A stretch of DNA of 30,102 nt, taken from positions 1 through 30,102 of the IMG/VR virus record IMGVR_UViG_3300009169_000065. One strand, written 5' to 3'. The notes beneath the pieces were generated by a model that did not search any database, was not told the DNA's origin, and worked only from the letters and a program-made list of their open reading frames with translations. This DNA is from a virus. Positions 6,844 to 27,755 of the stretch are shown in pieces. Both the position numbers and the translations under genes were made by a program. Each line of letters starts with the position of its first letter. The first letter of the stretch is position 1.

Positions 6844-8441
6844 TCGAGATACCCCTGTTCATCGAGCCAATCGACCAGCGCCGCCTGATCGGCGGTGCTA
6901 AGGTTCGCCGAAGCCCACGCGCCGAAAGCATCGAGGGCACCGGGGGCACCCTTGACGACGCCATCCAGAAGCGGCGTGGCCGCCGGGGGCAGCGCGACAG
7001 GCGGCGTAACCGTAGTCGGTGCCGGGGCCGGGGCAGGCGTGATGAACGGCGACGGCGTCTCCTCGCCGCCACCGATGCTGACCTCGTTGGGGTTGGCCGG
7101 GATCGTCGGGGCCGTGTAAGGGTTGTTGTAGTATTCCGGCAGCCCCAGCGCCCGAGGATCGACGCCGCGCTCTACGGCATACTCGATCAGGGGCCCGGTA
7201 GTCCCAATGAAACTCTCGCGCCTCACCTCTGCCACCCGCGTGGCGGCGTCCAGCATCATCTGCCGGGTCTTGACGGTGAGACCGCCGGCTGCCGCCTCGC
7301 GGTTGATGAGGTCGATCAGCGACTGACTGAAGCCGACGCTCTCCAGTGTGGCCGCCGCCTCGCCGCCGAGGACGCCCGTCGTGGGGTCGATCAGCTTGGA
7401 GAAGAGGGTCACCATCGTGCGGGTGTCCATCGGATTGCCCGACAGCGCGGCTTCCCGCAGGCCGTTGATCGCGGCGTCGGTCGCCGCGAGTATCTTGACG
7501 TCATCCGAGACGGACGACCGGAGGTCGTTGGTAAGCTTGTCGAGGTCCTTCTGGTCCGTCGGTGCGATGCCGCCATCCACGCCGGGGATCGCGGCCTCGG
7601 GGTCGTAGAGAAGCTTGACGGCCTCGTCACCCGACAGGCTGCCGGATGCGACGGCCTGCGCCAGCGCCTCGCCCTTGGGGCCCTGCCCGGCAAGCCACGA
7701 CGCGGTCGCGTTCTTTGCTGCTGCGTCCTGCTCCTGACCCATCTGGTAGCCCATCGCACTGCCGGCTGCCTGACCCTGCGCGGCCTGCGACATCGCGCGG
7801 CGGGCGCTCTCACCGCGAAGGAAGGCGTCGGTGGCCTCGAAGGTGGGGCCACTGCCCGCGCCGAGCGAGGTGAAGGCTTCGCCAGCCGCGACCAGACCGC
7901 CGGAGAGGCGGTCTCGCTTGGTGGGGCCGGGATCGAAGAGGGGGAAGTCGGCACCCCCCAGCATGTAGGACATCGGGTCGATTGCGCCCGAGGGGCCGCC
8001 CATCGAAGACATGGCCATGCTCGGCCCTCCATGCTGATCGCCTCCGGGGCTTCCCTTGCCCCAGCCCTCCCACGCGCCCGGGCCTTGGGTGGCGTAAATC
8101 CACTGCCCGATCCGGTCTTGGGTCGCCTTGTCGTAAGGGGTATTGGGGTCGAGGCCAAGGGCGTCCATCGCCGCGCGCATGGTCGTGCCGACGGCCTGAT
8201 AGGCCCCCGTGGGCGTGGCGACACGCCCGATCTGGCTCTTCACCCACTGCGCGTACTCACCGCTGGGCTTGGTGAACTCGGCCATCTGGCCGACCGTCAT
8301 CCGCGTCGGCTGGATGTGCGCGAACCGCCCACCGGGGCGGTTGCTGAACCCAAACAGCGCATTGTAGTCCCCGCCGCTCTCGCCCGGGAAAATCTTGGTC
8401 TGGGCGATCTGATCCCACCCTTGGATCGGCGTGAAGACCAT
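6840..8441 (-). CDS. Virion-associated protein with N-terminal lysozyme-like domain
   Basis: 533 residues. The first 130 look like a phage lysozyme/transglycosylase-like domain: GESGGDYNALFGF with E21 as candidate catalytic glutamate, a middle TPTGAYQAVGTTMRAAM segment (the usual 'GxYQ' region), and a C-terminal RIGQWIYA..GPGAWEGWG. The rest is helical and Gly/Ala-rich with a central acidic region, and near residues 455-490 a Pro/Thr-rich linker (ITPAPAPAPTTVTPP). It probably enters the periplasm with the DNA and locally opens peptidoglycan. It has no signal peptide, consistent with virion delivery rather than use as a secreted endolysin. The start has GGGAGG upstream. Gene overlap and position tie it to the neighbouring internal proteins. 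Domain assignment is good; the fate in the virion is inferred. Confidence 0.85.
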   Translation of the reverse strand: MVFTPIQGWDQIAQTKIFPGESGGDYNALFGFSNRPGGRFAHIQPTRMTVGQMAEFTKPSGEYAQWVKSQIGRVATPTGAYQAVGTTMRAAMDALGLDPNTPYDKATQDRIGQWIYATQGPGAWEGWGKGSPGGDQHGGPSMAMSSMGGPSGAIDPMSYMLGGADFPLFDPGPTKRDRLSGGLVAAGEAFTSLGAGSGPTFEATDAFLRGESARRAMSQAAQGQAAGSAMGYQMGQEQDAAAKNATASWLAGQGPKGEALAQAVASGSLSGDEAVKLLYDPEAAIPGVDGGIAPTDQKDLDKLTNDLRSSVSDDVKILAATDAAINGLREAALSGNPMDTRTMVTLFSKLIDPTTGVLGGEAAATLESVGFSQSLIDLINREAAAGGLTVKTRQMMLDAATRVAEVRRESFIGTTGPLIEYAVERGVDPRALGLPEYYNNPYTAPTIPANPNEVSIGGGEETPSPFITPAPAPAPTTVTPPVALPPAATPLLDGVVKGAPGALDAFGAWASANLSTADQAALVDWLDEQGYLE

Positions 8442-14773: not shown

Positions 14774-15270
14774 GGCTGATACTCCACGCAGAAACTGATC
14801 TCGTAGCTGGCGCTGTCCGCGACAAACCACGACCAGCCGACGGGCACGATGAAGAAGGCCCCCCGCAGGACAGACGCGCCGCCGGTGTTGTCGGTGGCGA
14901 TGTTGATCCACGTCCCGCCCACGGGACGCAGGTAGAGGTTCCACGTCGCGGCGGCGAGGAACCAGATGCCGAGCGAGACGAGGATGGGGGCGTCGAAGGG
15001 GTTCGCGTACTCGACGTTGATCAGCCGCTCCGCAGACACGTCTACGGGGGCCTTCTGGAAGTAGGCACCGCCCACGGGCAGCGCGGCCTTGGTGGTGAAG
15101 GGCGACGTCGCCACATCGTCGCGGACGCCCGCGATGGCCTCCGCCTCGGTGGCGTAGACGATGTTGGAGGCGTCCATCACCACCCACAGGCTGCCGTTCC
15201 AGACGAAGGTTGCGCCCTCCGCCTGATAGACTTGGCCCGGGACGGGGGCGCTGGGGAAGTTGATTGCCAT
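14770..15270 (-). CDS. Fibre-type paralogue 1 of 3
   Basis: 166 residues, first of the triplet. It starts MAINFPSAPVPGQVYQAEGA followed by TFVWNGSLWVVMD and TEAEAIAGVRDDVATSPFTT, matching the other two copies over roughly the first 65 residues. The remaining 100 residues are strand-rich and unique in sequence (LINVEYANPFDAPILVSLG, ending FVADSASYEISFCVEYQP). The 'NxxNPFD' segment corresponds to NPYD in copy 3 and to NTVG in copy 2. It lies 3 nt after the main tail fibre, with which it probably shares transcription and assembly. Confidence 0.8.
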   Translation of the reverse strand: MAINFPSAPVPGQVYQAEGATFVWNGSLWVVMDASNIVYATEAEAIAGVRDDVATSPFTTKAALPVGGAYFQKAPVDVSAERLINVEYANPFDAPILVSLGIWFLAAATWNLYLRPVGGTWINIATDNTGGASVLRGAFFIVPVGWSWFVADSASYEISFCVEYQP

Positions 15271-15273
15271 GCG

Positions 15274-16803
15274 TCAGGGCCCCAGAAGGGCTTCGAGGGC
15301 CGCCAGCCGCGCCTCAAGGTCGTTGACCTTGTTGGTGAGGGCGACGACCGCCGCCTCGCTGCCGCCAGACGTCTGCACCCACTGCCCGCCGTCCGCGTCC
15401 TGATACCAGACGAAGAGGCCGATGGGGGAGGCGGTCTTGAACCACAGCTGGCCCTGACTGGGGGTCGCGGGCGCGGCGTCGCCGACGGTGGTGGCGGGTG
15501 GGACAGAGCCCACCTGCATGTAGCGGACGTCGCCATGCTCTCGGGTGACGACGCTGGTGGCCCGGGCCAGCGATCCGCCCTTGGCGATGGTGTCCTCGAA
15601 TGTCGCCGGATAGCGGGCGTCGGAGCCGTCGGGGTCGTAGTAGGCGATGTTCAGGAGACCGGCGCGATCTGCCGAGGCATATGCGCGCTCGAAGTAGAGG
15701 AGTGCTTGCGTGATCCCCGCCGCGTTGCGGAAACTCAGGGTGGGGTTACCATCGGAGCGCAGCTGCGCCTGCCCCATGATCACCGCGCCGCCAGTTCCCG
15801 TGACCAGCGTCCCGCTGCTGCCCTTGAGGGTGACCGTCCCGCTCGGCGCGAGAGACCATATCTCCACGTCGTTGTGGCGGAATGTCAGGGCACCTGTCTG
15901 GGTGGGGGTGGCCCGAAGCCTCCAGTCCCACGCGGCGTCCCCGGCGTTGCTGCGGATGATGAAGTCGAGGATGCTGTCCGAGGCCCTCGCGCGCAGGATC
16001 AACGGGGCGAGAACGTTCGGGTTCACCGTCAGGGCACCCGTCAAGGTGCCGCCGACCAGCTGGAGGTAGCGGGCGTCGGCCTCGCCCTCGGTGATGCCGC
16101 CGGTGCCACTGTTCTCGTCCACATACTTCTTGGTGGCGGCGTGGAGGTCGGAAGTGGGCGCGGCATGCAGGGTCAGGAAGCCCGTCAGGGTGCCGCCACC
16201 GAGGGAAAGCTTTCCGTTGATCGAGGTCTGGAGGGCGGCGTCGGCTGCGGCGAAGTCATTGCGGATCGAGGTGTCGGCTGCCGCAAAGTCGTCACGGATC
16301 GAAGCGTCGGCTGCGGCGAACTCACCACGAACCGCCGTCCCGAGGGCGTCCACATACTGCTTGGGCGCGGCATGCAGCAGGGCGGTGGGGCTCGCGGACA
16401 GGGTCAGGAAGCCCGTCATCGTGCCACCAGCCTTCAGCAGGTAGTTCGGTAGCGCCGCCGCGATGGCGTCCACGTCGGCTGCGACCGCCGCCACGTCATC
16501 CGGCTGCGCGATGTCGATGCTGGCCGCCGTCAGGAAGACCGTCGCGCTGCCCGTCAGGACGATCAGGGTGCCTGTGCTGGATTGCACGACGTTCCGGGTC
16601 AGGCCATTGGTGTTCGCGTCGAAGAGGCCCCAGCCCAGTTCCCATGCGCCGCCCTCCTCGATGACGTAGCGCACCGTCGCGCCGCTGGGCACACCAGCCG
16701 CCGTGGGCGACTGGTAGCCCTTCAGGGGGCTGCCCAGAACGAGGGGGTCCGTCCCCACCGTCTTGGTGGAGACGAAGACCCGGTCGGCGAGGAAGACCCT
16801 CAT
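15274..16803 (-). CDS. Main tail fibre protein
   Basis: 509 residues from ATG 16803 (ATGA overlap with the adaptor stop; an upstream reading has no support). The N-terminal ~95 residues are a virion-attachment domain common in phage fibres (LADRVFVSTKTVGTDPLVLG, then VRYVIEEGGAWELGWGLFD and LTRNVVQSSTG). Next come fibre repeats of the type GGTMTGFLTL...HAAPKQYVD (copies near residues 150, 218 and 265), interrupted by a three-unit hendecad coiled coil. The middle is strand-rich. The end holds a short module PSQGQLWFKTASPIGLFVWY that resembles the opening of the three paralogues downstream, and a final heptad helix (LTNKVNDLEARLAALEALLG) suited to trimerisation. Confidence 0.9.
   Translation of the reverse strand: MRVFLADRVFVSTKTVGTDPLVLGSPLKGYQSPTAAGVPSGATVRYVIEEGGAWELGWGLFDANTNGLTRNVVQSSTGTLIVLTGSATVFLTAASIDIAQPDDVAAVAADVDAIAAALPNYLLKAGGTMTGFLTLSASPTALLHAAPKQYVDALGTAVRGEFAAADASIRDDFAAADTSIRNDFAAADAALQTSINGKLSLGGGTLTGFLTLHAAPTSDLHAATKKYVDENSGTGGITEGEADARYLQLVGGTLTGALTVNPNVLAPLILRARASDSILDFIIRSNAGDAAWDWRLRATPTQTGALTFRHNDVEIWSLAPSGTVTLKGSSGTLVTGTGGAVIMGQAQLRSDGNPTLSFRNAAGITQALLYFERAYASADRAGLLNIAYYDPDGSDARYPATFEDTIAKGGSLARATSVVTREHGDVRYMQVGSVPPATTVGDAAPATPSQGQLWFKTASPIGLFVWYQDADGGQWVQTSGGSEAAVVALTNKVNDLEARLAALEALLGP
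16228..16326 (-). repeat. Three 33-bp units encoding hendecad coiled-coil repeats
   Basis: Units at 16326-16294, 16293-16261 and 16260-16228 encode GEFAAADASIR, DDFAAADTSIR and NDFAAADAALQ. Eleven residues equal three helical turns, the hendecad period of straight or right-handed coiled coils. The units are highly similar in DNA as well, so copy number could change by recombination and alter fibre length. Confidence 0.9.
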
Positions 16804-17414
16804 GCGACGCCCCCGTAGGTGATCCGCTGCGGCGAGCCGGTGTTCTTGCGGTTCGCGTTCTCGTCCAGCGCGGACTGCAGCGCGGCCCCGTAAGCACCCA
16901 TCCACACCTGCAGTCGGTCATCCTCCCGCAGGAAGGGCGCGGCATGCTTCAGGGCGCAGTAGGCGTAGACGTCGAGGTAGTTGTCGGCCATCCAGCTGGC
17001 GTCGGTCGCCTTGAAGTCTGGGAGGTTGGCGTAGTAGACCATCGAGACGTCCACCGGGGCCGAGATCGAGTAGGGGCCGATCAGCCGGATCAGGTTGTTG
17101 GAGACGGTGAAGACGGGCCTGAACTGGCCGGCGGCCATCGCCTCCTCCCGCGCGAACTCAAGCGGCGAGAGGTAGGTCAGGGGACCGATGCCAGCCATGC
17201 TCAGGTTCCGCATCTCGCGGTAGTCCAGAGGCGTGGTGAGGATAGTGTCGGTGGCCTGCGCGTCGGCGGTGATCGTGCGATCCTCCACCTTGAAGACGCG
17301 GTTCAGTTCCGCATCCGCCATCTTGATCAGGCTGTCGAGGTTGGCGATCAGGACGGTGTCGCCATCACGCCAGAGGAAGGTCGTCAGGAACGCCTTGAAG
17401 TCTGCGTAGGTCAA
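16800..17414 (-). CDS. Head-tail adaptor (connector) protein, TTG start
   Basis: 204 residues. The only believable start is TTG 17414, with GGAGG eight bases upstream; no ATG or GTG fits the conserved beginning TYADFKAFLTTFLWRDGDTV. This is followed by LIKMADAELNRVFKVEDRTI and a mixed region with LDYREMRNLSM and VSMVYYANLP. The ending carries an aromatic helix DNYLDVYAYCALKHAAPFLR. The pattern 'YAxF-xFL-x-R-D ... LIxxAExxLNR' is that of podophage adaptor proteins that bind below the portal ring (P22 gp4-like position). It is located between head genes and the fibre genes, as expected. The TTG start probably tunes its dosage to the 12 copies needed. Confidence 0.82.
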   Translation of the reverse strand: MTYADFKAFLTTFLWRDGDTVLIANLDSLIKMADAELNRVFKVEDRTITADAQATDTILTTPLDYREMRNLSMAGIGPLTYLSPLEFAREEAMAAGQFRPVFTVSNNLIRLIGPYSISAPVDVSMVYYANLPDFKATDASWMADNYLDVYAYCALKHAAPFLREDDRLQVWMGAYGAALQSALDENANRKNTGSPQRITYGGVA

Positions 17415-17433
17415 TGCCGTCGCCTCCGAGGGG

Positions 17434-17452
17434 GCGGGGCTACTCGCCCCGC
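17434..17452 (-). other. Stem-loop at the gene junction before the adaptor
   Basis: GCGGGGC (17434-17440), loop TACTC, GCCCCGC (17446-17452): a perfect 7-bp GC stem. On the mRNA the stop codon of the upstream gene (17440-17442) lies at the loop and the GGAGG of the TTG-started adaptor is just downstream, so folding may make adaptor translation depend on ribosomes arriving from the gene before. Confidence 0.5.
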
Positions 17453-17754
17453 AGCTTGCTGAACTCGCCGTCCTTCAGCTTCTTGTGGGCGTACTCGCGC
17501 CACTGTTTCGTGCCGATGGCGGCCCCACACTCCTTCGCCCACTTCTGGCCGAGGAGCAGCGGGATTGACCCGATATACCGCATGGTGGGGTTCTTGGGTA
17601 GGTCTTTGGCGGCGCGGATCGCGTCGAACATCGGCTGCGCGTCCTGCGTCTTGGTGATGGTCACCACGCCGTCCTTGCTGACGACCTGCTCGCGGATGCC
17701 GGGCATCGCGTGGCGATCCCCGGCAAGCCAACTCATGCGGTGCAGCGGGGCCAC
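17440..17754 (-). CDS. Conserved small head-morphogenesis-region protein
   Basis: 104 residues from GTG 17754, preceded by GGGGGA; an alternative ATG lies at 17736. It starts MAPLHRMSWLAGDRHAMPGI, then a strand VVTITKTQDAQPMFDAIRAA and a basic half: RYIGSIPLLLGQKWAKECGA followed by TKQWREYAHKKLKDGEFSKL. Short proteins ending in '..IGSIP...W...G...W..YA.KKL.D.-.SKLR' occur next to adaptor genes in many podophages. The function is unknown to me. A DNA- or connector-binding role would suit its strongly basic C terminus, but this is inference. Confidence 0.78.
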   Translation of the reverse strand: MAPLHRMSWLAGDRHAMPGIREQVVSKDGVVTITKTQDAQPMFDAIRAAKDLPKNPTMRYIGSIPLLLGQKWAKECGAAIGTKQWREYAHKKLKDGEFSKLRGE

Positions 17755-17757
17755 CTG

Positions 17758-17946
17758 TCAGTCCCCCACGGCAGCCGATTTGACCGCGAACATCAGCGCG
17801 GTCTCAAGGTGGGACAGCGCCAGCGACTGGCGGCGGCCCACGGGGCTGTTCTCGCGGATCACAGCCTCCATCTCCACGCCAGCCTTCTTGATGGCGTCGA
17901 TGCCGGGGTTGGCGCTCGGGTTGAACTTCGGATCGGTAACGCTCAT
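17758..17946 (-). CDS. Acb2/Tad1-hairpin-like protein, candidate anti-CBASS cyclic-nucleotide sponge
   Basis: 62 residues from ATG 17946, with GAGGG eight bases upstream; ATG 17961 is possible but sits too close to its purine tract. After a short leader (DPKFNPSANPG) the whole protein is one helix-turn-helix hairpin: AIKKAGVEMEAVIRENSPVG, then RRQSLALSHLETALMFAVKS. The second helix matches the family pattern G-R-x-x-S-L-A-x-T/S-x-L-E-x-A-x-M-W/F-A-x-K-A of Acb2 (T4 Vs.4-like) proteins. These form small oligomers that bind cyclic di- and trinucleotides and so block CBASS (and for Tad1, Thoeris) immune signalling. The conserved Trp is Phe53 here. The assignment is by recognised pattern; ligand binding is untested. 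Confidence 0.72.
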   Translation of the reverse strand: MSVTDPKFNPSANPGIDAIKKAGVEMEAVIRENSPVGRRQSLALSHLETALMFAVKSAAVGD

Positions 17947-17950
17947 CTGG

Positions 17951-18193
17951 TCAGCCCTCATGCTCCTCGCCCTCGATATACGGGGCGAGCAGGTTGTGCT
18001 TGGTGAAGTGGCGCGCCTCATGGGGCAGCAGTTCCACCGTGGTGCCGACGGCGCGACGACCCTCGGAGGTCCAGATGTCCGCGCCCTTCACGACGTAGAG
18101 GCCCTTCTTCGGCGTCTTGACCTCAGGCGTGGCTTCAGCCGCCGGGGCCTCTGGGGTGCGGCGGTGGGGCGGGCGAAGGGGGGTGTCGTTCAT
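17951..18193 (-). CDS. Small conserved late protein with Pro-rich N terminus
   Basis: 80 residues with AAGGATG nine bases before the ATG. Residues 1-28 are a disordered Pro/Ala/Glu-rich arm. The rest is a compact domain, LYVVKGADIWTSEGRRAVGT followed by TVELLPHEARHFTKHNLLAP, of the kind 'V..G..v.l...eA..l...n.l', found in many short phage proteins encoded near head genes (DUF7210-like in style). It ends acidic (EGEEHEG). A small head-decoration or packaging accessory role is possible, and it lies five bases before the Acb2-like gene. Confidence 0.75.
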   Translation of the reverse strand: MNDTPLRPPHRRTPEAPAAEATPEVKTPKKGLYVVKGADIWTSEGRRAVGTTVELLPHEARHFTKHNLLAPYIEGEEHEG

Positions 18194-18206
18194 CTTCGGT
18201 TCATCC

Positions 18207-18593
18207 TTAGCGGGGGCCGTAGCCGGTGGCGGTGGGGGCCTGCTTCAGGAACTGCTGCAGCATGGCCATGAGTTCTTCGTCGGGGATCGCGCCCGGCGCT
18301 GGAAGCGGCGACGCGGTGACGGGGTCGTGCGCGCCCGGCATCATGCCGAAGGGGCCGAGACCAGCGGGTGCCGGGGCGGGGGTAGGCGTCATGGGAGGCG
18401 ACCCGCCAGCATAGCCCCCGCTGGTCGAGACCGTCGGCGCGCTGGGGGGAGCCGCCGCGCGGTCATTGTATCCCATCGGGCGCATGCCCATAGCGTTGAG
18501 GAGATCGGAGAAGAGGCCACCCTGAAACTCGTCTCCGGCGGTGCCTGCGCCGCCGCCGTTCAGCATGTCGAGAAGTGAGGTGTAGCCTGCCAT
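18207..18593 (-). CDS. Pro/Gly-rich late protein, unknown function
   Basis: 128 residues with a strong TGGAGG ribosome site. The N-terminal 40 residues contain short helices (YTSLLDMLNGG, FSDLLNAMGM). The middle is a low-complexity Pro/Ala/Gly/Thr linker (PPMTPTPAPAPAGLGPFG). A final helix is DEELMAMLQQFLKQA. This two-helices-with-linker arrangement recalls the gene at 4457-4795 and hints at a scaffold or decoration tether. It is the first gene after the hairpin downstream of the major capsid protein. Confidence 0.72.
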   Translation of the reverse strand: MAGYTSLLDMLNGGGAGTAGDEFQGGLFSDLLNAMGMRPMGYNDRAAAPPSAPTVSTSGGYAGGSPPMTPTPAPAPAGLGPFGMMPGAHDPVTASPLPAPGAIPDEELMAMLQQFLKQAPTATGYGPR

Positions 18594-18613
18594 CGGATGT
18601 CCTCCAAGGGATC

Positions 18614-18635
18614 GGTGCCCCCTCGCGGGGGCACC
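18614..18635 (-). terminator. Strong hairpin downstream of the major capsid gene
   Basis: GGTGCCCCC (18614-18622), loop TCGC, GGGGGCACC (18627-18635): a perfect 9-bp stem, ten bases after the capsid stop codon on the - strand. No T-run follows, so it is more likely a transcript-stabilising or partly terminating element than a full terminator. Such a device lets the capsid mRNA be more abundant than downstream messages. Confidence 0.7.
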
Positions 18636-18644
18636 GTGTTCAGA

Positions 18645-19673
18645 TCAGGGAGCCGGGGCAGCGCCCGAGGTGTCGGCGATGACACCGTGGGCCTGCTCGT
18701 TGTCCACCTGCAGGCCGTACTCGGCCCAGATCAGGCGCGAGCGGGCGTGGCCCGTCTCGGCCAGCGGCTTCTGCTTCACCTCATCGAGCCAGACCATGCG
18801 GGCATAGTCGGGGTCGATGACGTACACCGGGATGTTGTTGCCCAGAGTGTTGGGGGCGACGAAGTCGGTGTTCGGAAGGAAGCGCGTCGGCACGATGTCG
18901 AGTTCACCGAAGTCCGAGACGTAGACGTCGATGGCAGCCGACAGGGTCTTGTCCACGGCGTCCTTGTAGCGGGTCGAGGAGCCCGTGAAGGTCTTCGAGA
19001 TGACACGCTTGTTCAGCGCCTCAACCAGAGCCATCGTGGGCTGCGCGCCAGCCTTCCAGCACTTGCCGATGACCTCGTTGAACTGGTCTTCGGTGAGGGC
19101 CGCCGGCGAGGTGCCGGGGGTGGCTGCCGCGTTCGGGTAGCCGTCAGTGCCGCCCGACAGGGTCGGGTTCCCACCGCCAGCCTCGCGCACGACGTTGGTC
19201 TTGAGGAAGGCCGGGAGGCCAGCCGAGACCCGCGTGGTGGCACCCTGACCCGCGCCGGGGACAGCTGCGATGTTCTGCAGCAGCATCATCTCCACGTCGC
19301 GCTTCATCTCGCGCATCTTCAGCGCGATCTGCTCCGCGAGGCGGTTGATGTCCTCGGCGGCGCTGTCCACAGCCTCGTCGGTGTGGGAGGTGACGACCTT
19401 CTTGTCGCTGATCTGGGTGTAGTTGCCCAGACGGTTGGCCATCGTGGCCGCGTCGGTCCCGGGGGCCTGTTCGCCTTCAGGGACGCGGTTGTTGATGTCC
19501 GGCGCGGCGAGGTCAACGACCGGCCACTCGAAGTAGGTGCTGTCGGTGGTCTTGGTCCCGATGGCTGCTTGGAACGGCAGTTCCTCGGGGGAGATCATGA
19601 CGTACTGCTCTTGGAGGTCCTCGCGGATCACCTTGTTGTCGTACGTTTCGATCATGTTGGCTTCAACGGCCAT
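18645..19673 (-). CDS. Major capsid protein, SU10/DUF5309-like HK97 fold
   Basis: 342 residues, preceded by AAGGAAGAAAATC, the most AT-rich and probably strongest ribosome site in this unit. The pattern is that of SU10-type (DUF5309-like) capsid proteins: KVIREDLQEQYVMISPEELP, FEWPVVDLAAP.., VPEGEQAPGT, then MANRLGNYTQISDKKVVTSH with an EDINRLAEQIALKMREMKRD helix (the spine helix). Strand-rich axial-domain sequence follows (LGELD-type region FGELDIVPTRFLPNT, then NIPVYVIDPDYARMVWLDEV). Gene order scaffold-capsid and the following hairpin are typical for a highly expressed coat protein. No maturation protease is fused. Confidence 0.93.
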   Translation of the reverse strand: MAVEANMIETYDNKVIREDLQEQYVMISPEELPFQAAIGTKTTDSTYFEWPVVDLAAPDINNRVPEGEQAPGTDAATMANRLGNYTQISDKKVVTSHTDEAVDSAAEDINRLAEQIALKMREMKRDVEMMLLQNIAAVPGAGQGATTRVSAGLPAFLKTNVVREAGGGNPTLSGGTDGYPNAAATPGTSPAALTEDQFNEVIGKCWKAGAQPTMALVEALNKRVISKTFTGSSTRYKDAVDKTLSAAIDVYVSDFGELDIVPTRFLPNTDFVAPNTLGNNIPVYVIDPDYARMVWLDEVKQKPLAETGHARSRLIWAEYGLQVDNEQAHGVIADTSGAAPAP

Positions 19674-19693
19674 GATTTTCTTCCTTCTGGGGA

Positions 19694-20761
19694 TCAGCGG
19701 CGGGTCGCGCCCGGCCTGCTGATGACGAGGGTTTTGGCGACGTCACGGTAGTCTCCCGTGGACCTCGCCTGCTCAACCGCCGCCTGCGTCTTCTTCTGGA
19801 AGGTCCCGTTGGCTGCGCGCGTCGTGGGGGTCTGCGCCTTTGGCGGGGTGGGTTTCACCGTCGCCGTTGGCTTTCCGCCGCTCCTTGCACCCATGATGGT
19901 CTCCGCTCCCTGTGCCGCCAACATCGCGAGATAGATGACGCGCCGATCCGTCGCATATTTCCGCACTTCCTCGTCGGAGAACCCGACGGCCCGTGCGATC
20001 TCGAATACCCGCGTGGCTTGGGCCTTGCGGTACTCAGGGTTGGCCATCGCTGGCACTTCCTGAACCATCCGCTCAACTTCCGCCGCCGCGAACTGCGACC
20101 GTGTCTGCGCCTCAAGTGCCTCGGCCTGCTGCACGACCTCCTGCATATGAGCCTGCTGCGCCCTGAGCCGTTCCTGATCCTGCCTGTACGCCTCGACACC
20201 CGTCAGATAGCCAATGGGGTCGGTGCGCTGCAGAGATGGGTCTGGCATCTGCACCTGCGGGGCCAAGATGGCGGCCCCGTAATGCTGGTAGACTTGGGCA
20301 AGCTGCTGCGCTTGGTTGCGAAGCGCCTCGGTTTCCTTCTGGATGATTTCCCGTGCCGCCCCGCGTTCCTGCTCCAGTGCGACGTCGCGCGCTCGAACAG
20401 CTTCGTTGCGGGCCTCGGTGGCCTCCTGAAGACGTTTGGCGATAGCCCCCTCACCGCTGTAAGACTTGATGAGTTCGGCCAGCGAGACGTCGCGCTCCTC
20501 TCCCGCCACTTTCAGGCGGTAGAACTGCTCTTCGTCGCTGTCGCCCGTTCCCGCTTCGCCACTTTCCGAGGGGACTTGCGCCTCGTCAGTGCCTGCGGGG
20601 TCGATGCGATCCTCGTCATCGTCGCCTGTCGGCAAGTCGGCCTGATGGTCGGCACCCTGCTGCCCCTGCTCAATCGGCGTCGGAGCGGTCGGCGTGGCGG
20701 ACCTAGTTTCGACAAGTGCGGCAGCTACACTGCGGATGCTGCCGGGTTCGTCTGCTGGCAT
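19694..20761 (-). CDS. Scaffold protein
   Basis: 355 residues immediately upstream of the capsid gene (20 nt). It has the scaffold layout: a disordered acidic N-terminal half (TGDDDEDRIDPAGTDEAQVP and GTGDSDEEQFYRL), a central coiled coil (about residues 105-160, LQEATEARNEAVRARD.. and EIIQKETEALRNQAQQLAQV), a second helical segment (QERLRAQQAHMQEVVQQAEA), and a basic C terminus (KPTPPKAQTPTTRA, ending SRPGATRR) suited to binding the capsid protein inner surface. It is removed or cleaved before DNA packaging in related phages. No protease is visible in the window. Confidence 0.88.
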   Translation of the reverse strand: MPADEPGSIRSVAAALVETRSATPTAPTPIEQGQQGADHQADLPTGDDDEDRIDPAGTDEAQVPSESGEAGTGDSDEEQFYRLKVAGEERDVSLAELIKSYSGEGAIAKRLQEATEARNEAVRARDVALEQERGAAREIIQKETEALRNQAQQLAQVYQHYGAAILAPQVQMPDPSLQRTDPIGYLTGVEAYRQDQERLRAQQAHMQEVVQQAEALEAQTRSQFAAAEVERMVQEVPAMANPEYRKAQATRVFEIARAVGFSDEEVRKYATDRRVIYLAMLAAQGAETIMGARSGGKPTATVKPTPPKAQTPTTRAANGTFQKKTQAAVEQARSTGDYRDVAKTLVISRPGATRR

Positions 20762-20792
20762 TGATCGCCCTTCCTCTCGGTGTTGCGCGATG

Positions 20793-21005
20793 TCACTTGG
20801 CTTTTCGTGCCCATGTTTCGAGTTGCCCCAACATTTCGGACACGACCCTAGTGCCAGCGTAGGAATACTCCCGACCCGCTACATCTGGCAAGGGGCTTGC
20901 TGCAATGGCCTCCAGATAGTCCTGCCGGAGTGTCTCCAGCAGGTGCTTGGTCACCGGGTTCGACAGCAGTGCCTTGGCGGCGCGGTTCCGTTCGTCGTCG
21001 GTCAT
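20793..21005 (-). CDS. Small protein between portal and scaffold
   Basis: 70 residues starting four bases inside the portal stop (ATGA overlap). Mostly helical: DDERNRAAKALLSNPVTKHL, then LETLRQDYLEAIAASPL, a turn, and RVVSEMLGQLETWARKAK. It has neither cysteines nor membrane segments. Proteins of this size with an NP-x-x-x-x-L-x-x-x-R pattern sit at the same place in other podophages, with no described function known to me. Coupling to the portal suggests a part in procapsid assembly. Confidence 0.75.
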   Translation of the reverse strand: MTDDERNRAAKALLSNPVTKHLLETLRQDYLEAIAASPLPDVAGREYSYAGTRVVSEMLGQLETWARKAK

Positions 21006-23140
21006 GCCCTACCCTTCGGTGTGGTGGCGCGCTGCTGTGCGATGACCTTCTGGGTCTCCAGCTTCTGGCCCTCGATGGCCAGCCTGCCGGCCTCGACGTA
21101 GAGGTCCTGAAGCATCCGGTCGCGCTCCAGATCGTCGGTCTGCGCGACCTTGCCCATCTCCAGTTCCGCATCGACGATGGACTGGCGACGCTTGAGGTCG
21201 GCATCGAGGATCGCCTGCTGCGCCTTCTGCTGCGTCTTGATGCCCTCGACCTGCTTGAACGCCTCGACCTGCGGGTCGGGCGGCGGCGGCTGGCTGGCGG
21301 CCTGCTGCAGCTGCGCGACGACCTGCTGGCTCTCCTCCTCCGTCATCGGCTTGATGTAGCGGCTGACGTCCTTGAACCCCAGTGCCTTGATGTAGTCCTC
21401 CATCGTCTGGGTGACGTGGTAGGGCTGCACGACCGGGTTCGTGGGGCCAAACTGGCCGATGATCTTCTCCTGCAGCGCCATGACCTTCTCAAGGCCCACG
21501 ACACGCTTCTCGTCGTCACCGCCGCCGAGGCCGACGTTGACCTGCATGTTCAGGGTGGGGTCGAAGTTCCGCAGATCGACGGGGATGTACTCCTCGCCCG
21601 TGACCCAGACCACCTGCTGCGGGTCTTGATGCCGCATGCAGAGGCGCAGGATGCCCTGAAACAGCGGGATCATGCCCGTCTCGGCGAGGTTGCGGACCAT
21701 GACCTCGGTCTGGCCCGCCCCGCTCTGGATCGTGTTGGCGACGGCTTGCTTGTCGGTGGACTGCAGGGCCCGGGGGTCGAGGCCGAGGCTGGCCCGCGAG
21801 ACGCCCGTCTTGTTCTCGACGTCGTTGTTCCAATATTCAATAAAAGGAACCACTTGGCCGCCGACGAAGGGCACCGCGACCTCTTGGATCATGCCCGGCT
21901 GCCGGAAGCGGATCGGCGCGCCGATGTCCCAGTTCTGGACGTCGTCGGCGTTCACCATCGTCTCATGGTAGGCGATCCGGGGGTGGTTCGAGGCGTGGAG
22001 GTTGTTGATCACGCCCCGCGTCGCGGAGGTGATGCCGTCCTGATCGCTGTGCGTGAGGTCGTAGAGGGAGTTGCCGAAGACGGCCCCCGGCTTCGGGTCG
22101 ATCTGGAAGAGGGCGAAGTTGTGGCCGTCCTCGGCCCGCTCGAAGTACAGGAGTTCGAGGTCGGTGCCGCCCAGAACCCAGCGCCACATCTGCGCGATCC
22201 CGGTGCCATCCAGATCGGCGGCGCGGTAGACGTCGGTGATCAGCACCCGCTTCATCGACGGATCGACGCTGTCCTGCCGCTTCGCCTGACGGACGTAGCG
22301 GCGGCGGTTGCGGGCCTCGCCCGCATTGCGGTGGACCTCCGGCTCGGCGTTGTTAAGCCCCATGACTTGATCTGGATCAACTTCAGGGTAAGTCTTGAGG
22401 ACGTCGGAGACGGTCATCGAGACCTGCTTGCCGATCACCAGCGGCGGGCGGCCATTCACGGCACCCTCGTCGATGATCAGTTCCGACAGCAGCACGGGCT
22501 CCACGCGGACGCGGCCAGTGCGGCTCTGGTAGGCCATGTCCACGGTGTAGAGGGGCTCCTGCTGCACCTCGCCGCTGGGGCCCATCGTGGTGACCATCGT
22601 GGGGGTCGCGGAGATGATCCGCACGTTCGGCTGCTGCTGCAGCATCATCGCCTGCTCGGTCGTCAGGTTGGTGTAGGTCCGGTAGTCCTCCTCGACCTGC
22701 GTCTCCCACCAGTATTGGACCGGGCCGACCTTGTGCAGCATCGCGTTCTGGGCGGCGTCGTAGATCGCCCGATAGCCGCCCGCATTGGTGAACTCCTGCG
22801 CGACGTACATCGTCTGCTGGCGCGCCAGCGGGGCGACCACCTTGTTCGATGGCAGGAACTCGACCGGCGTGACGGAGCCGAAGAAGGCGCGCATGATCGA
22901 GGGGCGGACGCCCCTGATCGTGTCGCGGACCTTGGTGGCGACGTAGGCGCTGCGGTTGCCCTGCACCTTCACGTCTGACCCGCCGTTGTAGTACCGCTCG
23001 GCCCGCTCCCGCTCGCCCCCGAAGGTGCTGTCGAGGAAGTCCTGCGCCGTCTTCACGTCGCGGCCAATCTCCGAGACCATCGCCTCGATGTCGATGCCGT
23101 CGTCTTCGGCCTCCGGCGGGTTCGTGGTCATGTCAGACAT
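21002..23140 (-). CDS. Portal protein, P22 gp1-like
   Basis: 712 residues; AAGGA nine bases before the ATG. The N-terminal half has portal-type segments: VATKVRDTIRGVRPSIMRAF, then FLPSNKVVAPLARQQTMYVA and a long wing region. The centre contains GNSLYDLTHSDQDGITSATR followed by HASNHPRIAYHETM and the stem/crown region ALQSTDKQAVANTIQSGAGQ. The C-terminal ~90 residues form a charged helix (DADLKRRQSIVDAELEMGKV) that matches the barrel or crown of P22-like portals. It should form the dodecameric DNA entry ring, contacted by terminase on one side and the adaptor on the other. Length matches P22-like portals of about 700 residues. The gene order terminase, accessory genes, portal, scaffold, capsid fits. 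Confidence 0.93.
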   Translation of the reverse strand: MSDMTTNPPEAEDDGIDIEAMVSEIGRDVKTAQDFLDSTFGGERERAERYYNGGSDVKVQGNRSAYVATKVRDTIRGVRPSIMRAFFGSVTPVEFLPSNKVVAPLARQQTMYVAQEFTNAGGYRAIYDAAQNAMLHKVGPVQYWWETQVEEDYRTYTNLTTEQAMMLQQQPNVRIISATPTMVTTMGPSGEVQQEPLYTVDMAYQSRTGRVRVEPVLLSELIIDEGAVNGRPPLVIGKQVSMTVSDVLKTYPEVDPDQVMGLNNAEPEVHRNAGEARNRRRYVRQAKRQDSVDPSMKRVLITDVYRAADLDGTGIAQMWRWVLGGTDLELLYFERAEDGHNFALFQIDPKPGAVFGNSLYDLTHSDQDGITSATRGVINNLHASNHPRIAYHETMVNADDVQNWDIGAPIRFRQPGMIQEVAVPFVGGQVVPFIEYWNNDVENKTGVSRASLGLDPRALQSTDKQAVANTIQSGAGQTEVMVRNLAETGMIPLFQGILRLCMRHQDPQQVVWVTGEEYIPVDLRNFDPTLNMQVNVGLGGGDDEKRVVGLEKVMALQEKIIGQFGPTNPVVQPYHVTQTMEDYIKALGFKDVSRYIKPMTEEESQQVVAQLQQAASQPPPPDPQVEAFKQVEGIKTQQKAQQAILDADLKRRQSIVDAELEMGKVAQTDDLERDRMLQDLYVEAGRLAIEGQKLETQKVIAQQRATTPKGRA

Positions 23141-23162
23141 GGGAATAAATCCTTGTAGGGCC

Positions 23163-23191
23163 TTTATAGTGCCCCGTGGAACGCCTATGTT
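23163..23191. promoter_or_regulatory. Bidirectional promoter candidate between portal and the + strand gene
   Basis: On the + strand TTTATA (23163-23168), 17-bp spacer, TATGTT (23186-23191), followed by the gene at 23224. Read on the - strand the same hexamers give TATAAA (23168-23163) as a -10 for the portal, with a poor -35 (AACATA). The - strand core CACTATAAAGG also resembles single-subunit phage RNA polymerase promoters (SP6 core CACTATAGAAG). It lies in one of the few AT-richer stretches. Neither reading is proven. Confidence 0.4.
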
Positions 23192-23223
23192 GTAGGCTCA
23201 TGACGAGAGAGAGGAAACCCATC

Positions 23224-23406
23224 ATGGACGAGATCGAACCCCTACTCACCGAGAACCAGCTGACGGCCCTCATGGACGGCATCTGGGAGGCTTTCATCGT
23301 GCCGCAGTGCGTGGACGGCGTTGCCCCGGTGGACCGTGAAAATGCCTTCAACGAGATCGAGGTGCAATATCGGATCATGGTTGGTTTGCCTCCAGCCACC
23401 GCATGA
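23224..23406 (+). CDS. Isolated + strand 60-residue acidic protein
   Basis: The only + strand gene within the late block. ATG 23224 has GAGGAAA nine bases upstream; a longer reading from 23176 lacks such a site. The protein is acidic and helical: MDEIEPLLTENQLTALMDGI, then WEAFIVPQCVDG and RENAFNEIEVQYRIMVGLPP. The opposite-strand reading over the same bases is Ser-rich and without a ribosome site, so the + reading is favoured. Its last 32 nt overlap the 3' end of the large - strand gene at 23375. Transcription from here would be antisense to that gene's message. No family recognised. Confidence 0.65.
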   Translation: MDEIEPLLTENQLTALMDGIWEAFIVPQCVDGVAPVDRENAFNEIEVQYRIMVGLPPATA

Positions 23407-25993
23407 TGCTGTCCACCATCTGCGCGTCCACCCTCTGGGTGGTCGGCGACATCATGAACGACCGCTGATCGGAACCAGTCTTTGCGCCCTTGGCGCGGCG
23501 CTCGTTGAAGAAGTCGCGCCAGATCAACTCACCCGGGATGCGTCCCGTGCCCAGCTTGCCGAGGTAATCCCCCGCCAGCTGGGTGTCGTAGGACTTGTGG
23601 GCGCGCAGGTTGCCGAGTTCTCCCGGGCCGAGCATCTTTCCGGTGGGGTCCACCGCACCCATCGTCAGGCCGGTGTCGAAGGGGTTGGCATGCACCAGCC
23701 GGGGATCGGTGATCCCGAAGCGCGCCGCCGCGATGCTGGGGAAGCCCGCCTTCCGCATCGCGGCGCTCTCCATCGCCAGCATCGCCGCGCGGCGGTTGGT
23801 GCCCGACAGGCCCCGCAGGCGATCATGCGCCCCGGGGCTAAGGATGCCCGGCCACTCCGCATCAACAGGCTTCCTCACCCCATCGACAATCGTGTCGGGG
23901 GTTCCCTCGCGCATCAGCTTGTCGAAGGCTTCCGCCCCCTCCTTGGTGATCTTGGAGGGGTCGAACTGCCCCATGACCGCGTCGGTCATCATGGTCGAGA
24001 AGTCGCCCGAGGGGGCGGCCATCGAGGTGTAGGCCAAGATCGGCGTGTCGCCCCTCTCGGCGATGTCGCGGGCGGCCTTGGCCTTCGGGGCCAGCGCCTT
24101 GCGCTCCGACGCCCATATGCCCGTGTCGGGCTCCCGCATGAAGTCTGCGCCACCCTCCAGCCGCACCGGGCTGGTCAGGGGCTGCCCGTTCAGGGCCTCA
24201 AGCACCCCGCCGGCAGCCGTGCGGTCGCCGAAGGCGGGGATCAGGGTGGCTTTGCCCTCCCAGTCCTCGATGCTGAACGGCTTCTCCGGCACCAGCGCGC
24301 CGGTGGGGGACACCGTGGCGCTCATGTCGGCGAGAGGCATCTCCAGCTTGATGTTCGACCCCTGCCACCACATGCGCGGATCGCGAGCGATTGCCCCGAG
24401 TTCGTCGCCCGCGAAAGCTTTCAGGGCGTCCTCGCCGGTGTCGGCCAGCGCCCGGCCCATCGAACGGCCCGTGGCCCCCATCGGGAAAGCCTCAAGCCCC
24501 GCCATGCCGAGGCTCGACAGGGCCTCGCCAGCCGATCCGACCCGCTCCAACGCGGTCTTGCCCGGGGCGAACGCCTCGCCCGAGGCGACCATGCTGTCTT
24601 GCAGCGACCCGACCGGGTTCGGCATGGCCAGCGCCAGCCGCTCGGGGATGCCCGTACCGCCGAGGTAGTAGTTCAGGGCCTCGTCGATGCCTGCGGCGGC
24701 GCGATCCCGCAGGTTCCGGGTGTCGGGCGCGGCCTCTGGGGCCGGAGCCGGCATCAGGTCGAGGATGCTGGGGGCGTTGCGCGGATCGCCCTCGGCGTAG
24801 CCGCCCGTGACCGGGCCGCCGGGTTCGCGCTTCGGGGCGTTCGCCACGAAGTCGTTGATGCTGCCCAGCAGCTTGGTCTGGAGGTCCTCCGGGGGTGCGG
24901 CTGCGGCGTCGGCCTGACCGCCCGGGAGGGCCGCCGCGCCGAAGGTGAGGCCGACGGGTGCGCCGATGCCCGCCATGAGGTTCGGCAGGTGCTTCAGCTG
25001 GGGGTGGTTCCACGCGGCGACATCGCGCAGGACCGCATCGCGGCCACCGCGCTCCGTCAGGGCGATATTGCTGACCGAGCCCTTGTCCTCGACCTCGTTA
25101 CGGTAGGGGATGTTCGTGAAACCGAAGTCGGTGCCCAGCTTCTCGCCAAACTCCGGGGCCGTCGCTTGGTTGGCGGCCTCGTTCCGCATCAGCCGCAGGA
25201 AGTTGTTCGCCTCGCCCTCGCGGTGCCAGACGTCGGGGTTCTCGGCCACCGCCCGCTCGGCTGACGCCAGCATGTCGCGGCTTGCCCGCGACCCGACGGG
25301 GTAAGTCTGCGCGAAGGCCAGCGCCTCGGTGGGTGTGAGGGGCTTCGAGGTGTCCAGCAGCAGTTCGCGGGTGTGCTGCGCGCCGACGCCGACGCCGCGC
25401 TCCATCGCCGCCTGCTCGGTGCCCATGTGGGTGCCGACACGGTCGAAGACCGCCTGCCCGCTGTCCTTGGTCATGCGAGGGTCGAAGCGCGAGAAGCGTT
25501 CCGGGGCCTTGGTGGCGTGGTACTGCGGCTCCGGGTTCTGCAGGAAGGGGGCGCGCTTCTCACCCAGCGCATAGGGCAGCCCACCCTCGCGCTCGGCCTT
25601 CTCGAAGAGTTCGGGCGTGACCTGCTTGCCGAGGTTGTTCTCCAGCAGCCGCTTCAGGGCGTTTGTCGCATCCCCGCCACTTTTGGTCGCAAAGGGCAGC
25701 CCGAAGATGTCGTCGGTGAAGGGTAGCATCGGGTCTTCGTCGCCCGGCCCCATCGCGAGGTTATCGACGGGTCGGATGCCGCCCTCGGGGAGGGGAGACC
25801 AGACCTGCGGGACGTCGTAGCCGTCGAGGCCGGTCGCCTTGGCATAGGCGTTCGCGGTCGCAGCATCGTTGAAGAACGGGAACGTGGTGACGCCGTGGGG
25901 GTTCGGGTTCTGCGACACCCCCGCCATCAGGTCGTCAACGCTCTTCAGCCCGAGGGTGTCGAGCAGCTTGCGGATCGCGACGCCGGAGACCAT
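23375..25993 (-). CDS. Large polyvalent protein with ADP-ribosyltransferase-like domain
   Basis: 872 residues. Residues about 155-315 look like the ART domain of phage 'polyvalent' proteins: QYHATKAPERFSRFDPRM with H159, GTHMGTEQAAMERG (G187-T-H), and the final YRNEVEDKGSVSNIALTE with the acidic pair E300/E302. A low-complexity Pro/Ala linker (residues about 365-430) follows. The C-terminal 350 residues form a second conserved region seen in podophage large proteins (EGGADFMREPDTGIWASERK, then MAAPSGDFSTMM and SGTNRRAAMLAMESAAMRKA, RFGITDPRLV). Such proteins are thought to be packaged and injected to modify host targets. The start lies three bases after the stop of the small basic gene, a weakly recognised start that probably needs coupling. 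ART activity is inferred from the pattern. Confidence 0.75.
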   Translation of the reverse strand: MVSGVAIRKLLDTLGLKSVDDLMAGVSQNPNPHGVTTFPFFNDAATANAYAKATGLDGYDVPQVWSPLPEGGIRPVDNLAMGPGDEDPMLPFTDDIFGLPFATKSGGDATNALKRLLENNLGKQVTPELFEKAEREGGLPYALGEKRAPFLQNPEPQYHATKAPERFSRFDPRMTKDSGQAVFDRVGTHMGTEQAAMERGVGVGAQHTRELLLDTSKPLTPTEALAFAQTYPVGSRASRDMLASAERAVAENPDVWHREGEANNFLRLMRNEAANQATAPEFGEKLGTDFGFTNIPYRNEVEDKGSVSNIALTERGGRDAVLRDVAAWNHPQLKHLPNLMAGIGAPVGLTFGAAALPGGQADAAAAPPEDLQTKLLGSINDFVANAPKREPGGPVTGGYAEGDPRNAPSILDLMPAPAPEAAPDTRNLRDRAAAGIDEALNYYLGGTGIPERLALAMPNPVGSLQDSMVASGEAFAPGKTALERVGSAGEALSSLGMAGLEAFPMGATGRSMGRALADTGEDALKAFAGDELGAIARDPRMWWQGSNIKLEMPLADMSATVSPTGALVPEKPFSIEDWEGKATLIPAFGDRTAAGGVLEALNGQPLTSPVRLEGGADFMREPDTGIWASERKALAPKAKAARDIAERGDTPILAYTSMAAPSGDFSTMMTDAVMGQFDPSKITKEGAEAFDKLMREGTPDTIVDGVRKPVDAEWPGILSPGAHDRLRGLSGTNRRAAMLAMESAAMRKAGFPSIAAARFGITDPRLVHANPFDTGLTMGAVDPTGKMLGPGELGNLRAHKSYDTQLAGDYLGKLGTGRIPGELIWRDFFNERRAKGAKTGSDQRSFMMSPTTQRVDAQMVDSIMRWLEANQP

Positions 25994-26217: not shown

Positions 26218-27657
26218 TCAGAACCCCTCCAGCCGCCTCGGGTGCGGTTTGCTCCACGGCAGCGTTGACCAAGTGCTGGACCCTGCCGCGCCGGACGCGA
26301 TCCCGCCGTCGGCGGCGAAAGTCAGACACCGCGCGTCGGCGATGTTCGGAGACGCGACCCCGCGCTGCTTCATCTGCGCCTTGCTCTCGACGTCGGTCTT
26401 GCCCGTCGAGGTGATGATCATGCCCGGCTCGCAGAGTTCGTTCACCAGCTTCTCGGCCAGATTGCTGTCGCAGGAGATCAGCACGTCGCGGCGCTCGAAC
26501 CACGCCCGCACCGCGAACCACAGTTCGGCGCGCAGTCGCGGGAAGCGGTCGCGCATCGCGGGGCTCTCCGCGACGTTGACGTCCATCACTGGCAGCCCCA
26601 TCTGCCGCAGCCGGTCAGCCACACCCGCGCCGACGCCGATGGCGTCCACGCAGATCAGCCGTGGCCGCTCGGCGGGGGAGCAGTTCTGCCACCGCTCGAA
26701 GACCCAGCCCACGACCCGCATGGTGTCGGCGTAGTGCAGTTCCTTGGCGAAGGTGACCACGTTCCCGCAGCGGACGATGAAGCCCGTGGGGTCGCCGCCG
26801 CGACCGGGGTCAACGCCCCAGATCGCCTCATCCGTGACCGCCACCACGTCCCGACCGATGGCCGGCTCCGCCAGTTCGCGGGGGATGACGCTGTCCTCGT
26901 CGTTCTCTGGGAACTCGCCGAGGACACGGATGCGCCACTGGTTCGAGTTCTCGGTGTAGGTCCGCCGCATCTCCTCGATGAAGTCTGGCGTCACGCGGGT
27001 GCTGTCGGAGCAGCTGACGCGGCGGGTCCACCAGAGGTCCTTCAGGATCGTGTGGGTGCGGTAGAACAGCCCCTTGGCCCGCGTGGGGTTGCCGATCAGG
27101 ATGAAGATCGCGCCTGCGGTGGACATCGTCCCCCGCGCGGCCTCGTAGACGGGCTCTGGGATGCCCGACGCCTCGTCCGCGATCACCATCACGTTCGCCG
27201 CGTGGATGCCCTGCAGCGCCTCGGGGTTCTCGATCCGCGCCGTCCGGTAGCTGATGAAGTTGTTGTCGGGGTCTTCCGCCAGCACGATCCGGTTGGTCTG
27301 CATCGTGATCAGGTCCGCGAGCCCGTACTTCAGCCGCCCCACCAGAAGCTTGGTCTCTGGGATCAGGCCGTCCTTCAGCTGGCTGCTGGAGGGGCTGGTC
27401 ACCACGATCTTGGTGTCGCGGGTGAACAGGAGCATGTGGAGCGAGCAGATCGCCGCGAAGAACGTCTTCCCGACGCCGTGTCCCGACCGGATGCTGATCC
27501 GGTCCTCGCCCGCGTCCAGCGCCATCAGCGTGTCGCGCTGCCACTTCTCCAGCACGATGGGGTGGCCGCCGCTCTCAAGGCAGTTCTCCACGAAGAACAC
27601 GCGGTTGTGCATCGCGCGGTCGAGGATCGCATCCACTGAGAGCGGCGCATCCAGCAT
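26218..27657 (-). CDS. Terminase large subunit
   Basis: 479 residues from ATG 27657 (overlapping the previous stop as TGATG). The ATPase has Walker A SGHGVGKT (K64), Walker B VMVIADEAS (D161, E162) and the coupling motif region IFILIGNP. The C-terminal RNase-H-like nuclease has GVDPGRGGDPTG (D283), ICVDAIGVG (D338) and NIADARCLT (D441), the three acidic residues expected. It cuts the replicated concatemer and pumps DNA through the portal. The classical small subunit has not been identified; the gene at 28209 is a candidate by position. A reading extended to 27753 would cover the membrane-peptide gene and lacks a start site. Confidence 0.95.
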   Translation of the reverse strand: MLDAPLSVDAILDRAMHNRVFFVENCLESGGHPIVLEKWQRDTLMALDAGEDRISIRSGHGVGKTFFAAICSLHMLLFTRDTKIVVTSPSSSQLKDGLIPETKLLVGRLKYGLADLITMQTNRIVLAEDPDNNFISYRTARIENPEALQGIHAANVMVIADEASGIPEPVYEAARGTMSTAGAIFILIGNPTRAKGLFYRTHTILKDLWWTRRVSCSDSTRVTPDFIEEMRRTYTENSNQWRIRVLGEFPENDEDSVIPRELAEPAIGRDVVAVTDEAIWGVDPGRGGDPTGFIVRCGNVVTFAKELHYADTMRVVGWVFERWQNCSPAERPRLICVDAIGVGAGVADRLRQMGLPVMDVNVAESPAMRDRFPRLRAELWFAVRAWFERRDVLISCDSNLAEKLVNELCEPGMIITSTGKTDVESKAQMKQRGVASPNIADARCLTFAADGGIASGAAGSSTWSTLPWSKPHPRRLEGF

Positions 27658-27755
27658 CAGCGGCGCATCGCCTTCGCGAAGAACAGCGCCAGAACGACCA
27701 GCGCCGCCGATGCGCCGATGGCCATGCCCAGAAGCACCAGAAACACGTCCCACAT
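27657..27755 (-). CDS. 32-residue single-span membrane peptide
   Basis: Read from the DNA between resolvase and terminase. ATG 27755 overlaps the resolvase stop (TGATG), and TGA 27659-27657 overlaps the terminase start the same way; GGAGG is ten bases upstream. It is nearly all one membrane span: MWDVFLVLLGMAIGASAALV, then VLALFFAKAMRR with positive charge at the C-terminal end, so an N-out/C-in topology is expected. The span holds G and A residues suited to helix packing. It may be a small holin-like or pinholin-type peptide, an anchor for a terminase partner, or a toxin-like peptide. Nothing in the neighbourhood settles this. Confidence 0.7.
   Translation of the reverse strand: MWDVFLVLLGMAIGASAALVVLALFFAKAMRR

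What the first reader, a model, noticed from the sequence alone, without database searches (positions are those of the whole stretch)
17758..17946. Acb2/Tad1-like hairpin gene hidden among head genes
The 62-residue protein consists of little more than the helical hairpin with R38, S41, L42, A43, L47, E48, A50, M52 and K56 in the spacing of the Acb2 (T4 Vs.4-like) family, whose members bind cyclic oligonucleotides and stop CBASS signalling. It is shorter than described Acb2 proteins and has Phe in place of the usual Trp at position 53. Location inside the late unit means it would be expressed late, or be carried with the virion, which would be unusual for an anti-defence protein and suggests either late protection or a second role.
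Basis: partly seen in the sequence, partly recalled or inferred. Interest (0 to 1): 0.75.

Follow-up and report, generated by a model that had tools for sequence, protein, structure and literature searches.

The report
Acb2-type nucleotide sponge among head genes
A tiny phage gene wedged between capsid-assembly genes belongs to the known Acb2/Tad1 family of proteins that soak up bacterial alarm molecules; related phages lack it at that spot, but some carry a cousin elsewhere, sometimes beside other head genes.

Summary
ORF 17758-17946 (-) encodes 62 aa and passes Pfam PF24729 (Acb2/Tad1 hairpin, E 8e-10, 39 bits against a cut-off of 27). It is a real gene: a viral homologue is 61% identical over its whole length, with differences concentrated at third codon positions (14/16/43). 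It sits 4 and 3 nt from its neighbours. A profile of it and relatives ranks an Acb2 homologue first in the PDB (1.6e-7), then Tad1, Vs.4 and PaP2 Acb2 at weak E-values. Known pocket positions are mostly kept (F8 for Tyr8, K20, R38, S45); T4's stacking Phe82 is Ala59. In 75 relatives where both the capsid gene and o104 were found, none has a PF24729 gene between them, so it is accessory cargo, not a core head part. Other PF24729 genes recur in this lineage, e.g. just upstream of terL and between terL and portal; at least 18 of 65 distinct loci of a related subfamily have portal or terminase nearby. Head-gene placement is recurrent, not unique. Most likely a late-transcribed cyclic-oligonucleotide sponge. 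Binding, hexamer, timing and virion carriage are untested. New member of a known kind.

The parts
17758..17946 (-). acb2-like gene, 62 aa: N-terminal FNPS motif plus Acb2/Tad1 helical hairpin (predicted helices 14-33 and 38-60)
   Evidence: PF24729 E 8e-10; 61% identical homologue; third-position substitution bias; AlphaFold2 pLDDT 85
17951..18193 (-). o80, core head-module ORF directly upstream (relatives carry ...GYLKPYIE at the same place)
   Evidence: tblastn to three relatives and ORF reading of the interval in many more
18207..18593 (-). o128, ORF between MCP and o80, not found in this interval in relatives; no family match above Pfam cut-off
17440..17754 (-). o104, conserved head-module ORF (phrog_3982), GTG start 3 nt after the acb2 stop
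   Evidence: found in 75 of 80 relatives together with MCP
16800..17414 (-). SU10-type adaptor protein
   Evidence: PF24175 E 3e-19
18645..19673 (-). SU10-type major capsid protein
   Evidence: PF17236 E 2e-76
19694..20761 (-). head scaffolding protein
   Evidence: phrog_3927 E 9e-24
21002..23140 (-). SU10-type portal protein
   Evidence: PF23899 E 2e-138
26218..27753 (-). terminase large subunit
   Evidence: PF03237, phrog_2

Best explanation
The gene encodes a minimal Acb2-type sponge. Shown: it is a conserved coding sequence with the Acb2/Tad1 hairpin, placed as accessory cargo in the head gene cluster at the o80/o104 junction. Inferred: the hairpins assemble into a hexamer that binds cyclic oligonucleotides without cutting them. 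R38 and S45 sit where PaP2 Acb2 and Tad1 have their conserved Arg and Thr (by memory the trinucleotide site at the threefold axis); F8 and K20 sit at the cyclic-dinucleotide site between protomers. This starves effectors of CBASS or similar signalling defences. With tight gene spacing and no promoter-like or convincing terminator-like site around it, it is most likely translated from the late head transcript, so the sponge would peak when capsid proteins, reported triggers or escape loci of such defences, accumulate.
For: Pfam PF24729 over the curated cut-off; T4 Vs.4, a proven sponge (PMC12657218), is in the same Pfam family. Profile search of the PDB: Acb2 homolog 43 (1.6e-7), then Tad1 (0.02), Vs.4 (0.08) and PaP2 Acb2 p26 (0.11). 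R38 invariant in 10- and 24-member alignments; F8, K20, A43, E48, M52 and K56 invariant in the 24-member one. The Pfam alignment of a relative puts the F of FNPS on profile position 2, where Vs.4 has Tyr8; Y8A abolishes T4 Acb2 function in the Panoptes assays (PMC12657218). Model: two-helix hairpin; the best structural re-alignment is T4 Vs.4 with cGAMP (Z 6.2), Tad1 5.3, Acb2 5.0. Purifying selection and operon spacing; no promoter-like site within 15000-24000 and terminator-like sites no more than chance. Absent from the same interval in 75 relatives. Capsid mutations help acb2-lacking phage escape CBASS (PMC10419184), and Thoeris ThsB1 senses a phage head protein (PMC12043709).
Against: No binding, oligomer or expression data. 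The cyclic-dinucleotide site differs from T4: Tyr8 is Phe, and the stacking Phe82 is Ala59 (PaP2 Acb2 also has Ala there). Trp is Phe53. The N-terminal 10 residues are modelled with low confidence (58). Foldseek finds nothing significant, and the Vs.4 match (Z 6.2) does not stand clear of unrelated helical hairpins (Z 5-6). The roles of K26 and R67 in PaP2 Acb2 are recalled, not retrieved. Late timing is inferred from gene order only; the record is a 30-kb fragment without an early region.
Confidence: 0.72

Rival explanations
1. The protein has the Acb2 fold but is a specialised sponge that binds only cyclic trinucleotides (or another nucleotide signal), not cyclic dinucleotides.
For: The Arg recalled as trinucleotide site (R38) is invariant, while the dinucleotide-site Tyr and C-terminal Phe of T4 are replaced by Phe8 and Ala59. 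T4 Vs.4 shows the reverse, Asp61 at the Arg position. Acb2 homologues differ in ligand range (PMC12043709).
Against: An aromatic and a Lys are kept at the dinucleotide site; PaP2 Acb2 binds cGAMP with Ala at the Phe82 position.
Confidence: 0.3
2. The hairpin has been recruited as a structural or assembly factor of the capsid, and its sponge ancestry is no longer used.
For: Location between conserved head genes with 4- and 3-nt spacing.
Against: 75 relatives with the same head module have no such gene there. The closest homologue lies inside a replication gene of an N4-like phage. Family signature residues are under selection.
Confidence: 0.08
3. Chance ORF or pseudogene in a GC-rich genome.
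For: Short ORF; the window has many spurious long ORFs in other frames.
Against: Curated profile match, full-length homologue, third-position bias, codon GC3 like its neighbours, operon spacing.
Confidence: 0.01
4. The gene is an ordinary sponge expressed early from its own promoter despite lying in the head cluster.
For: Non-sigma-70 or phage-specific promoters would not be seen by the scan.
Against: No space for a separate promoter in the 4-nt gap; one could only lie inside o80 or further upstream.
Confidence: 0.12

Closest known systems
Acb2 / T4 Vs.4 (anti-CBASS 2)
   Same: Same Pfam domain (PF24729), two-helix hairpin without a beta domain, Thr/Ser + Met-aromatic-Ala motif, Lys and aromatic at the cyclic-dinucleotide site
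   Different: 62 instead of 88-94 aa (shorter between the helices), Phe for Tyr8 and for Trp76, Ala for Phe82, Arg where T4 has Asp61; lies in the head cluster, whereas T4 vs.4 lies among accessory genes near regB and denV
Acb2 homolog 43 (PDB 9ptq)
   Same: Best sequence match in the PDB (1.6e-7 by profile), short protein, P-x-GR-x-x-S motif
   Different: Only about 45 residues align; its phage and ligand were not found in the papers held
Tad1 (Thoeris anti-defence 1)
   Same: C-terminal hairpin with R...A-x-T-H-x-E-x-A-x-M-W
   Different: The window protein lacks Tad1's N-terminal beta-sheet domain that lines the gcADPR site (PMC12043709)
FNPS-type PF24729 proteins of uncultured phages (e.g. 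L099) and Flavobacterium phages such as FCL-2
   Same: FNPS motif before helix 1, R-x(6)-T/S, E-x-x-x-M-W/F-A-V-K
   Different: 30-41% identity; the viral-contig members carry an extra GEYRVGI N-terminus and a longer inter-helix loop
SUFG_00048 of Sulfitobacter phage phiCB2047-B
   Same: C-terminal 60 aa 57% identical
   Different: Fused to a RyR domain and encoded next to thymidylate synthase

Membership tests
Acb2/Tad1 hairpin (Pfam PF24729) | Profile match above the curated gathering score | tested here: met
   39.2 bits against 27, E 8.3e-10
Acb2/Tad1 hairpin (Pfam PF24729) | Two long antiparallel helices | tested here: met
   AlphaFold2 helices 14-33 and 38-60, pLDDT 94-96 in residues 21-50
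Acb2/Tad1 hairpin (Pfam PF24729) | Helix-2 signature seen in relatives: Arg-x(6)-Ser/Thr ... Glu ... Met-Trp/Phe-Ala | tested here: met
   R38, S45, E48, M52, F53, A54; R38, E48, M52 invariant in 24 sequences, Trp to Phe at 53. T4 Vs.4 itself lacks the Arg
Acb2 (sponge) | Cyclic-dinucleotide site residues (T4 Tyr8, conserved Lys, Phe82) | tested here: inconclusive
   Phe8 and Lys20 present, Phe82 replaced by Ala59 as in PaP2 Acb2; the model is weak in residues 1-10
Acb2 (sponge) | Fold match to solved Acb2 | tested here: inconclusive
   T4 Vs.4 ranks first, Z 6.2, but unrelated hairpins score 5-6; Foldseek E 6.3
Acb2 (sponge) | Homohexamer | not testable with these tools
   No complex prediction offered
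Acb2 (sponge) | Binds and sequesters cyclic oligonucleotides; blocks CBASS | not testable with these tools
   Needs purified protein and phage assays
Tad1 | N-terminal beta-sheet domain before the hairpin | tested here: not met
   Only 13 residues precede helix 1; no strand predicted
Head structural protein of the SU10-like core | Present at the same place in related head modules | tested here: not met
   0 of 75 relatives with both MCP and o104 found

The most novel reading that the evidence does not exclude
Sponge genes are repeatedly placed beside terminase, portal and capsid genes because head proteins are the trigger of signalling defences: making the sponge from the same late message as the capsid would match its dose and timing to the trigger (or, less likely, load it into the virion).
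Probability: 0.15. Interest if true: 0.7.

Novelty: new member of a known kind. Interest (0 to 1): 0.42.

Why it matters
At 62 aa it is shorter than the solved Acb2 proteins, so it is a handle on the minimal sponge. Its placement with head genes makes a simple idea testable: that phages couple a counter-defence to the very proteins that trip the alarm. It also shows that PF24729 genes behave as movable cargo in uncultured phages, where cultured relatives annotate them as hypothetical proteins.

Tried and rejected
Longer ORF from 18021 (87 aa): rejected, since homology and the ribosome-binding-like motif point to 17946. Foldseek against the PDB: no significant match; small helical hairpins do not discriminate. 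Search for relatives of the adaptor by single protein: none confirmed, although tblastn on loci fetched by MCP found o104 plus adaptor in 35. The profile of all ten distant members was too diverse for a collection scan; the closer set returned only the two known loci. NCBIfam gave no match for the window protein, T4 Vs.4 or the other queries. Primary Acb2 papers were not held; pocket residues K26 and R67 of PaP2 Acb2 are therefore from memory; a search for them found nothing.

Full report
What is there. The ORF at 17758-17946 on the minus strand starts at ATG 17946 and encodes 62 residues. It scores 39.2 bits (E 8.3e-10) against Pfam PF24729, Acb2/Tad1 hairpin domain, above the curated cut-off of 27, and matches PHROG 1454. 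T4 Vs.4, a proven sponge, is in the same Pfam family (71 bits). The nearest homologue found in viral contigs is 61% identical over all 62 residues (L001/L002); the next is the C-terminal 60 residues of SUFG_00048 of Sulfitobacter phage phiCB2047-B (57%). Between the window gene and L002 the differences fall 14/16/43 on codon positions 1/2/3, and 24 of the 38 shared residues use different codons, so the protein is under purifying selection. Its GC3 (0.87) resembles that of its neighbours (0.75-0.92), so by composition it is not a recent foreign arrival.

Surroundings. The window is a whole 30,102-base virus record, much shorter than the 41-kb records of relatives, so probably a fragment. The genes read on the minus strand are TerL, SU10-type portal, scaffold, SU10-type major capsid protein, o128, o80, the hairpin gene, o104, SU10-type adaptor and tail-fibre-like genes. 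The hairpin gene begins 4 nt after o80 and ends 3 nt before o104. No sigma-70-like promoter was found in 15000-24000, and terminator-like sites were no more frequent than in shuffles. This fits co-expression with the head genes, but timing was not measured.

Is it part of the head? 80 relatives were fetched with the capsid protein (54-60% identity). Both MCP and o104 were found in 75 of them; where the small gene between them could be read it lies directly before o104. None has a PF24729 match there: the records of all 80 were scanned with the family. So the gene is accessory cargo at the o80/o104 junction. PF24729 genes do occur elsewhere in this lineage: in G005 about 0.2 kb upstream of TerL, in G032 between TerL and portal, and in G014 (two), G041 and G043 away from and opposite in strand to the capsid gene.

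How usual is head-gene placement? A related FNPS-type subfamily gave 158 viral loci (80 kept, 65 with distinct genes). Among large flanking ORFs (up to two on each side), an SU10-like portal occurs in 13 loci and a terminase in 5, one of them shared, and L099 has TerL and portal by tblastn: 18 distinct loci in all. Helicase and primase-like genes occur in about 10 others. Many contigs are truncated, so this is a lower bound. The placement is therefore recurrent rather than a one-off. Whether it is more frequent than chance was not tested.

Ligand sites. Aligning helix 2 of the window protein with Vs.4 and PaP2 Acb2 gives S45 = Vs.4 T68 = PaP2 T74; M52 = M75; F53 = W76; A59 = F82 = a PaP2 Ala; R38 = Vs.4 D61 = PaP2 R67 = the Arg of Tad1. 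For helix 1, the Pfam alignment of relative G005 starts at profile position 1 on the Gly before FNPS, and that of Vs.4 starts at Gly7, so the Phe of FNPS (F8 here) corresponds to Tyr8, and K20 to Vs.4 K23 / PaP2 K26. Y8A and F82C destroy T4 Acb2 function in the Panoptes assays (PMC12657218), and T68M is reported to reduce T4 Acb2 binding (PMC12657230). That R67 serves trinucleotides and K26 dinucleotides in PaP2-type Acb2 is my recollection of the original papers, which were not held. The window protein thus keeps the trinucleotide-type Arg, a hydroxyl at the T68 place, and an aromatic and a Lys at the dinucleotide site, but not Phe82.

Structure. AlphaFold2 gives a hairpin (helices 14-33 and 38-60, mean pLDDT 85; the first ten residues 58). 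Foldseek finds nothing significant. VIA-align of Foldseek's candidates ranks T4 Vs.4 with cGAMP first (Z 6.2), with Tad1 at 5.3 and Acb2 at 5.0, but unrelated hairpins score 5-6. Sequence, not fold, carries the identification.

Mechanism. The best-supported reading is a minimal Acb2-type sponge made late with the capsid proteins. Reported biology makes late production sensible: phages lacking acb2 escape CBASS through a capsid mutation (PMC10419184), and Thoeris ThsB1 recognises a phage head protein (PMC12043709). Shown here: family, selection, position, absence from the core. Inferred: hexamer, ligand, timing, defence.

Verdict. A new member of a known family in a recurrent but little-remarked location. 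A side finding about split DNA polymerase genes in N4-like phages may deserve its own look (see Noticed in passing).

Noticed in passing
L181:3805-4001 (= L002:5989-6192), L184:3529-4008, L185:2008-2451, L186:3541-4008, L187:3490-4008, L190:3012-4017, L191:3453-4001, L192:3261-4001, L209:3172-3723: In a clade of N4-like phages the family-A DNA polymerase gene is split into two ORFs, and the gap holds alternative cargo: an Acb2/Tad1 hairpin gene (L002/L181 alone, L185 with another N-terminus, L191 fused to RyR), a Tad2-like gene PF11195 (L184, L186, L187, L190, L192), and in L190 also a NUMOD4/HNH endonuclease; the more distant L209 has an AP2-domain ORF in its gap. Many relatives have an intact polymerase. 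It looks like a homing-endonuclease site reused as a slot for nucleotide-sponge genes.
   Followed up: partly
L183:3893-3945, L188:3824-3987: Polymerase halves overlap in different frames with no cargo between them, possibly split genes after loss of cargo.
   Followed up: partly
L004:11620-12183; L191:3453-3998: RyR domain fused N-terminal to an Acb2/Tad1 hairpin, in two different phages.
   Followed up: no
L049, L050, L052, L054, L055, L056, L073 (right after the capsid gene): About 670 bp of extra, mostly non-coding-looking sequence directly after the capsid gene; absent in L057, which is close to L054-L056.
   Followed up: no
window 18207-18593: 128-aa Gly/Pro-rich ORF between MCP and o80, not found in this interval in relatives, no family match.
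   Followed up: no
G014:C1:6546-6758 and 7810-7917 (L092, L095): One phage record carries two different PF24729 genes about 1 kb apart.
   Followed up: no
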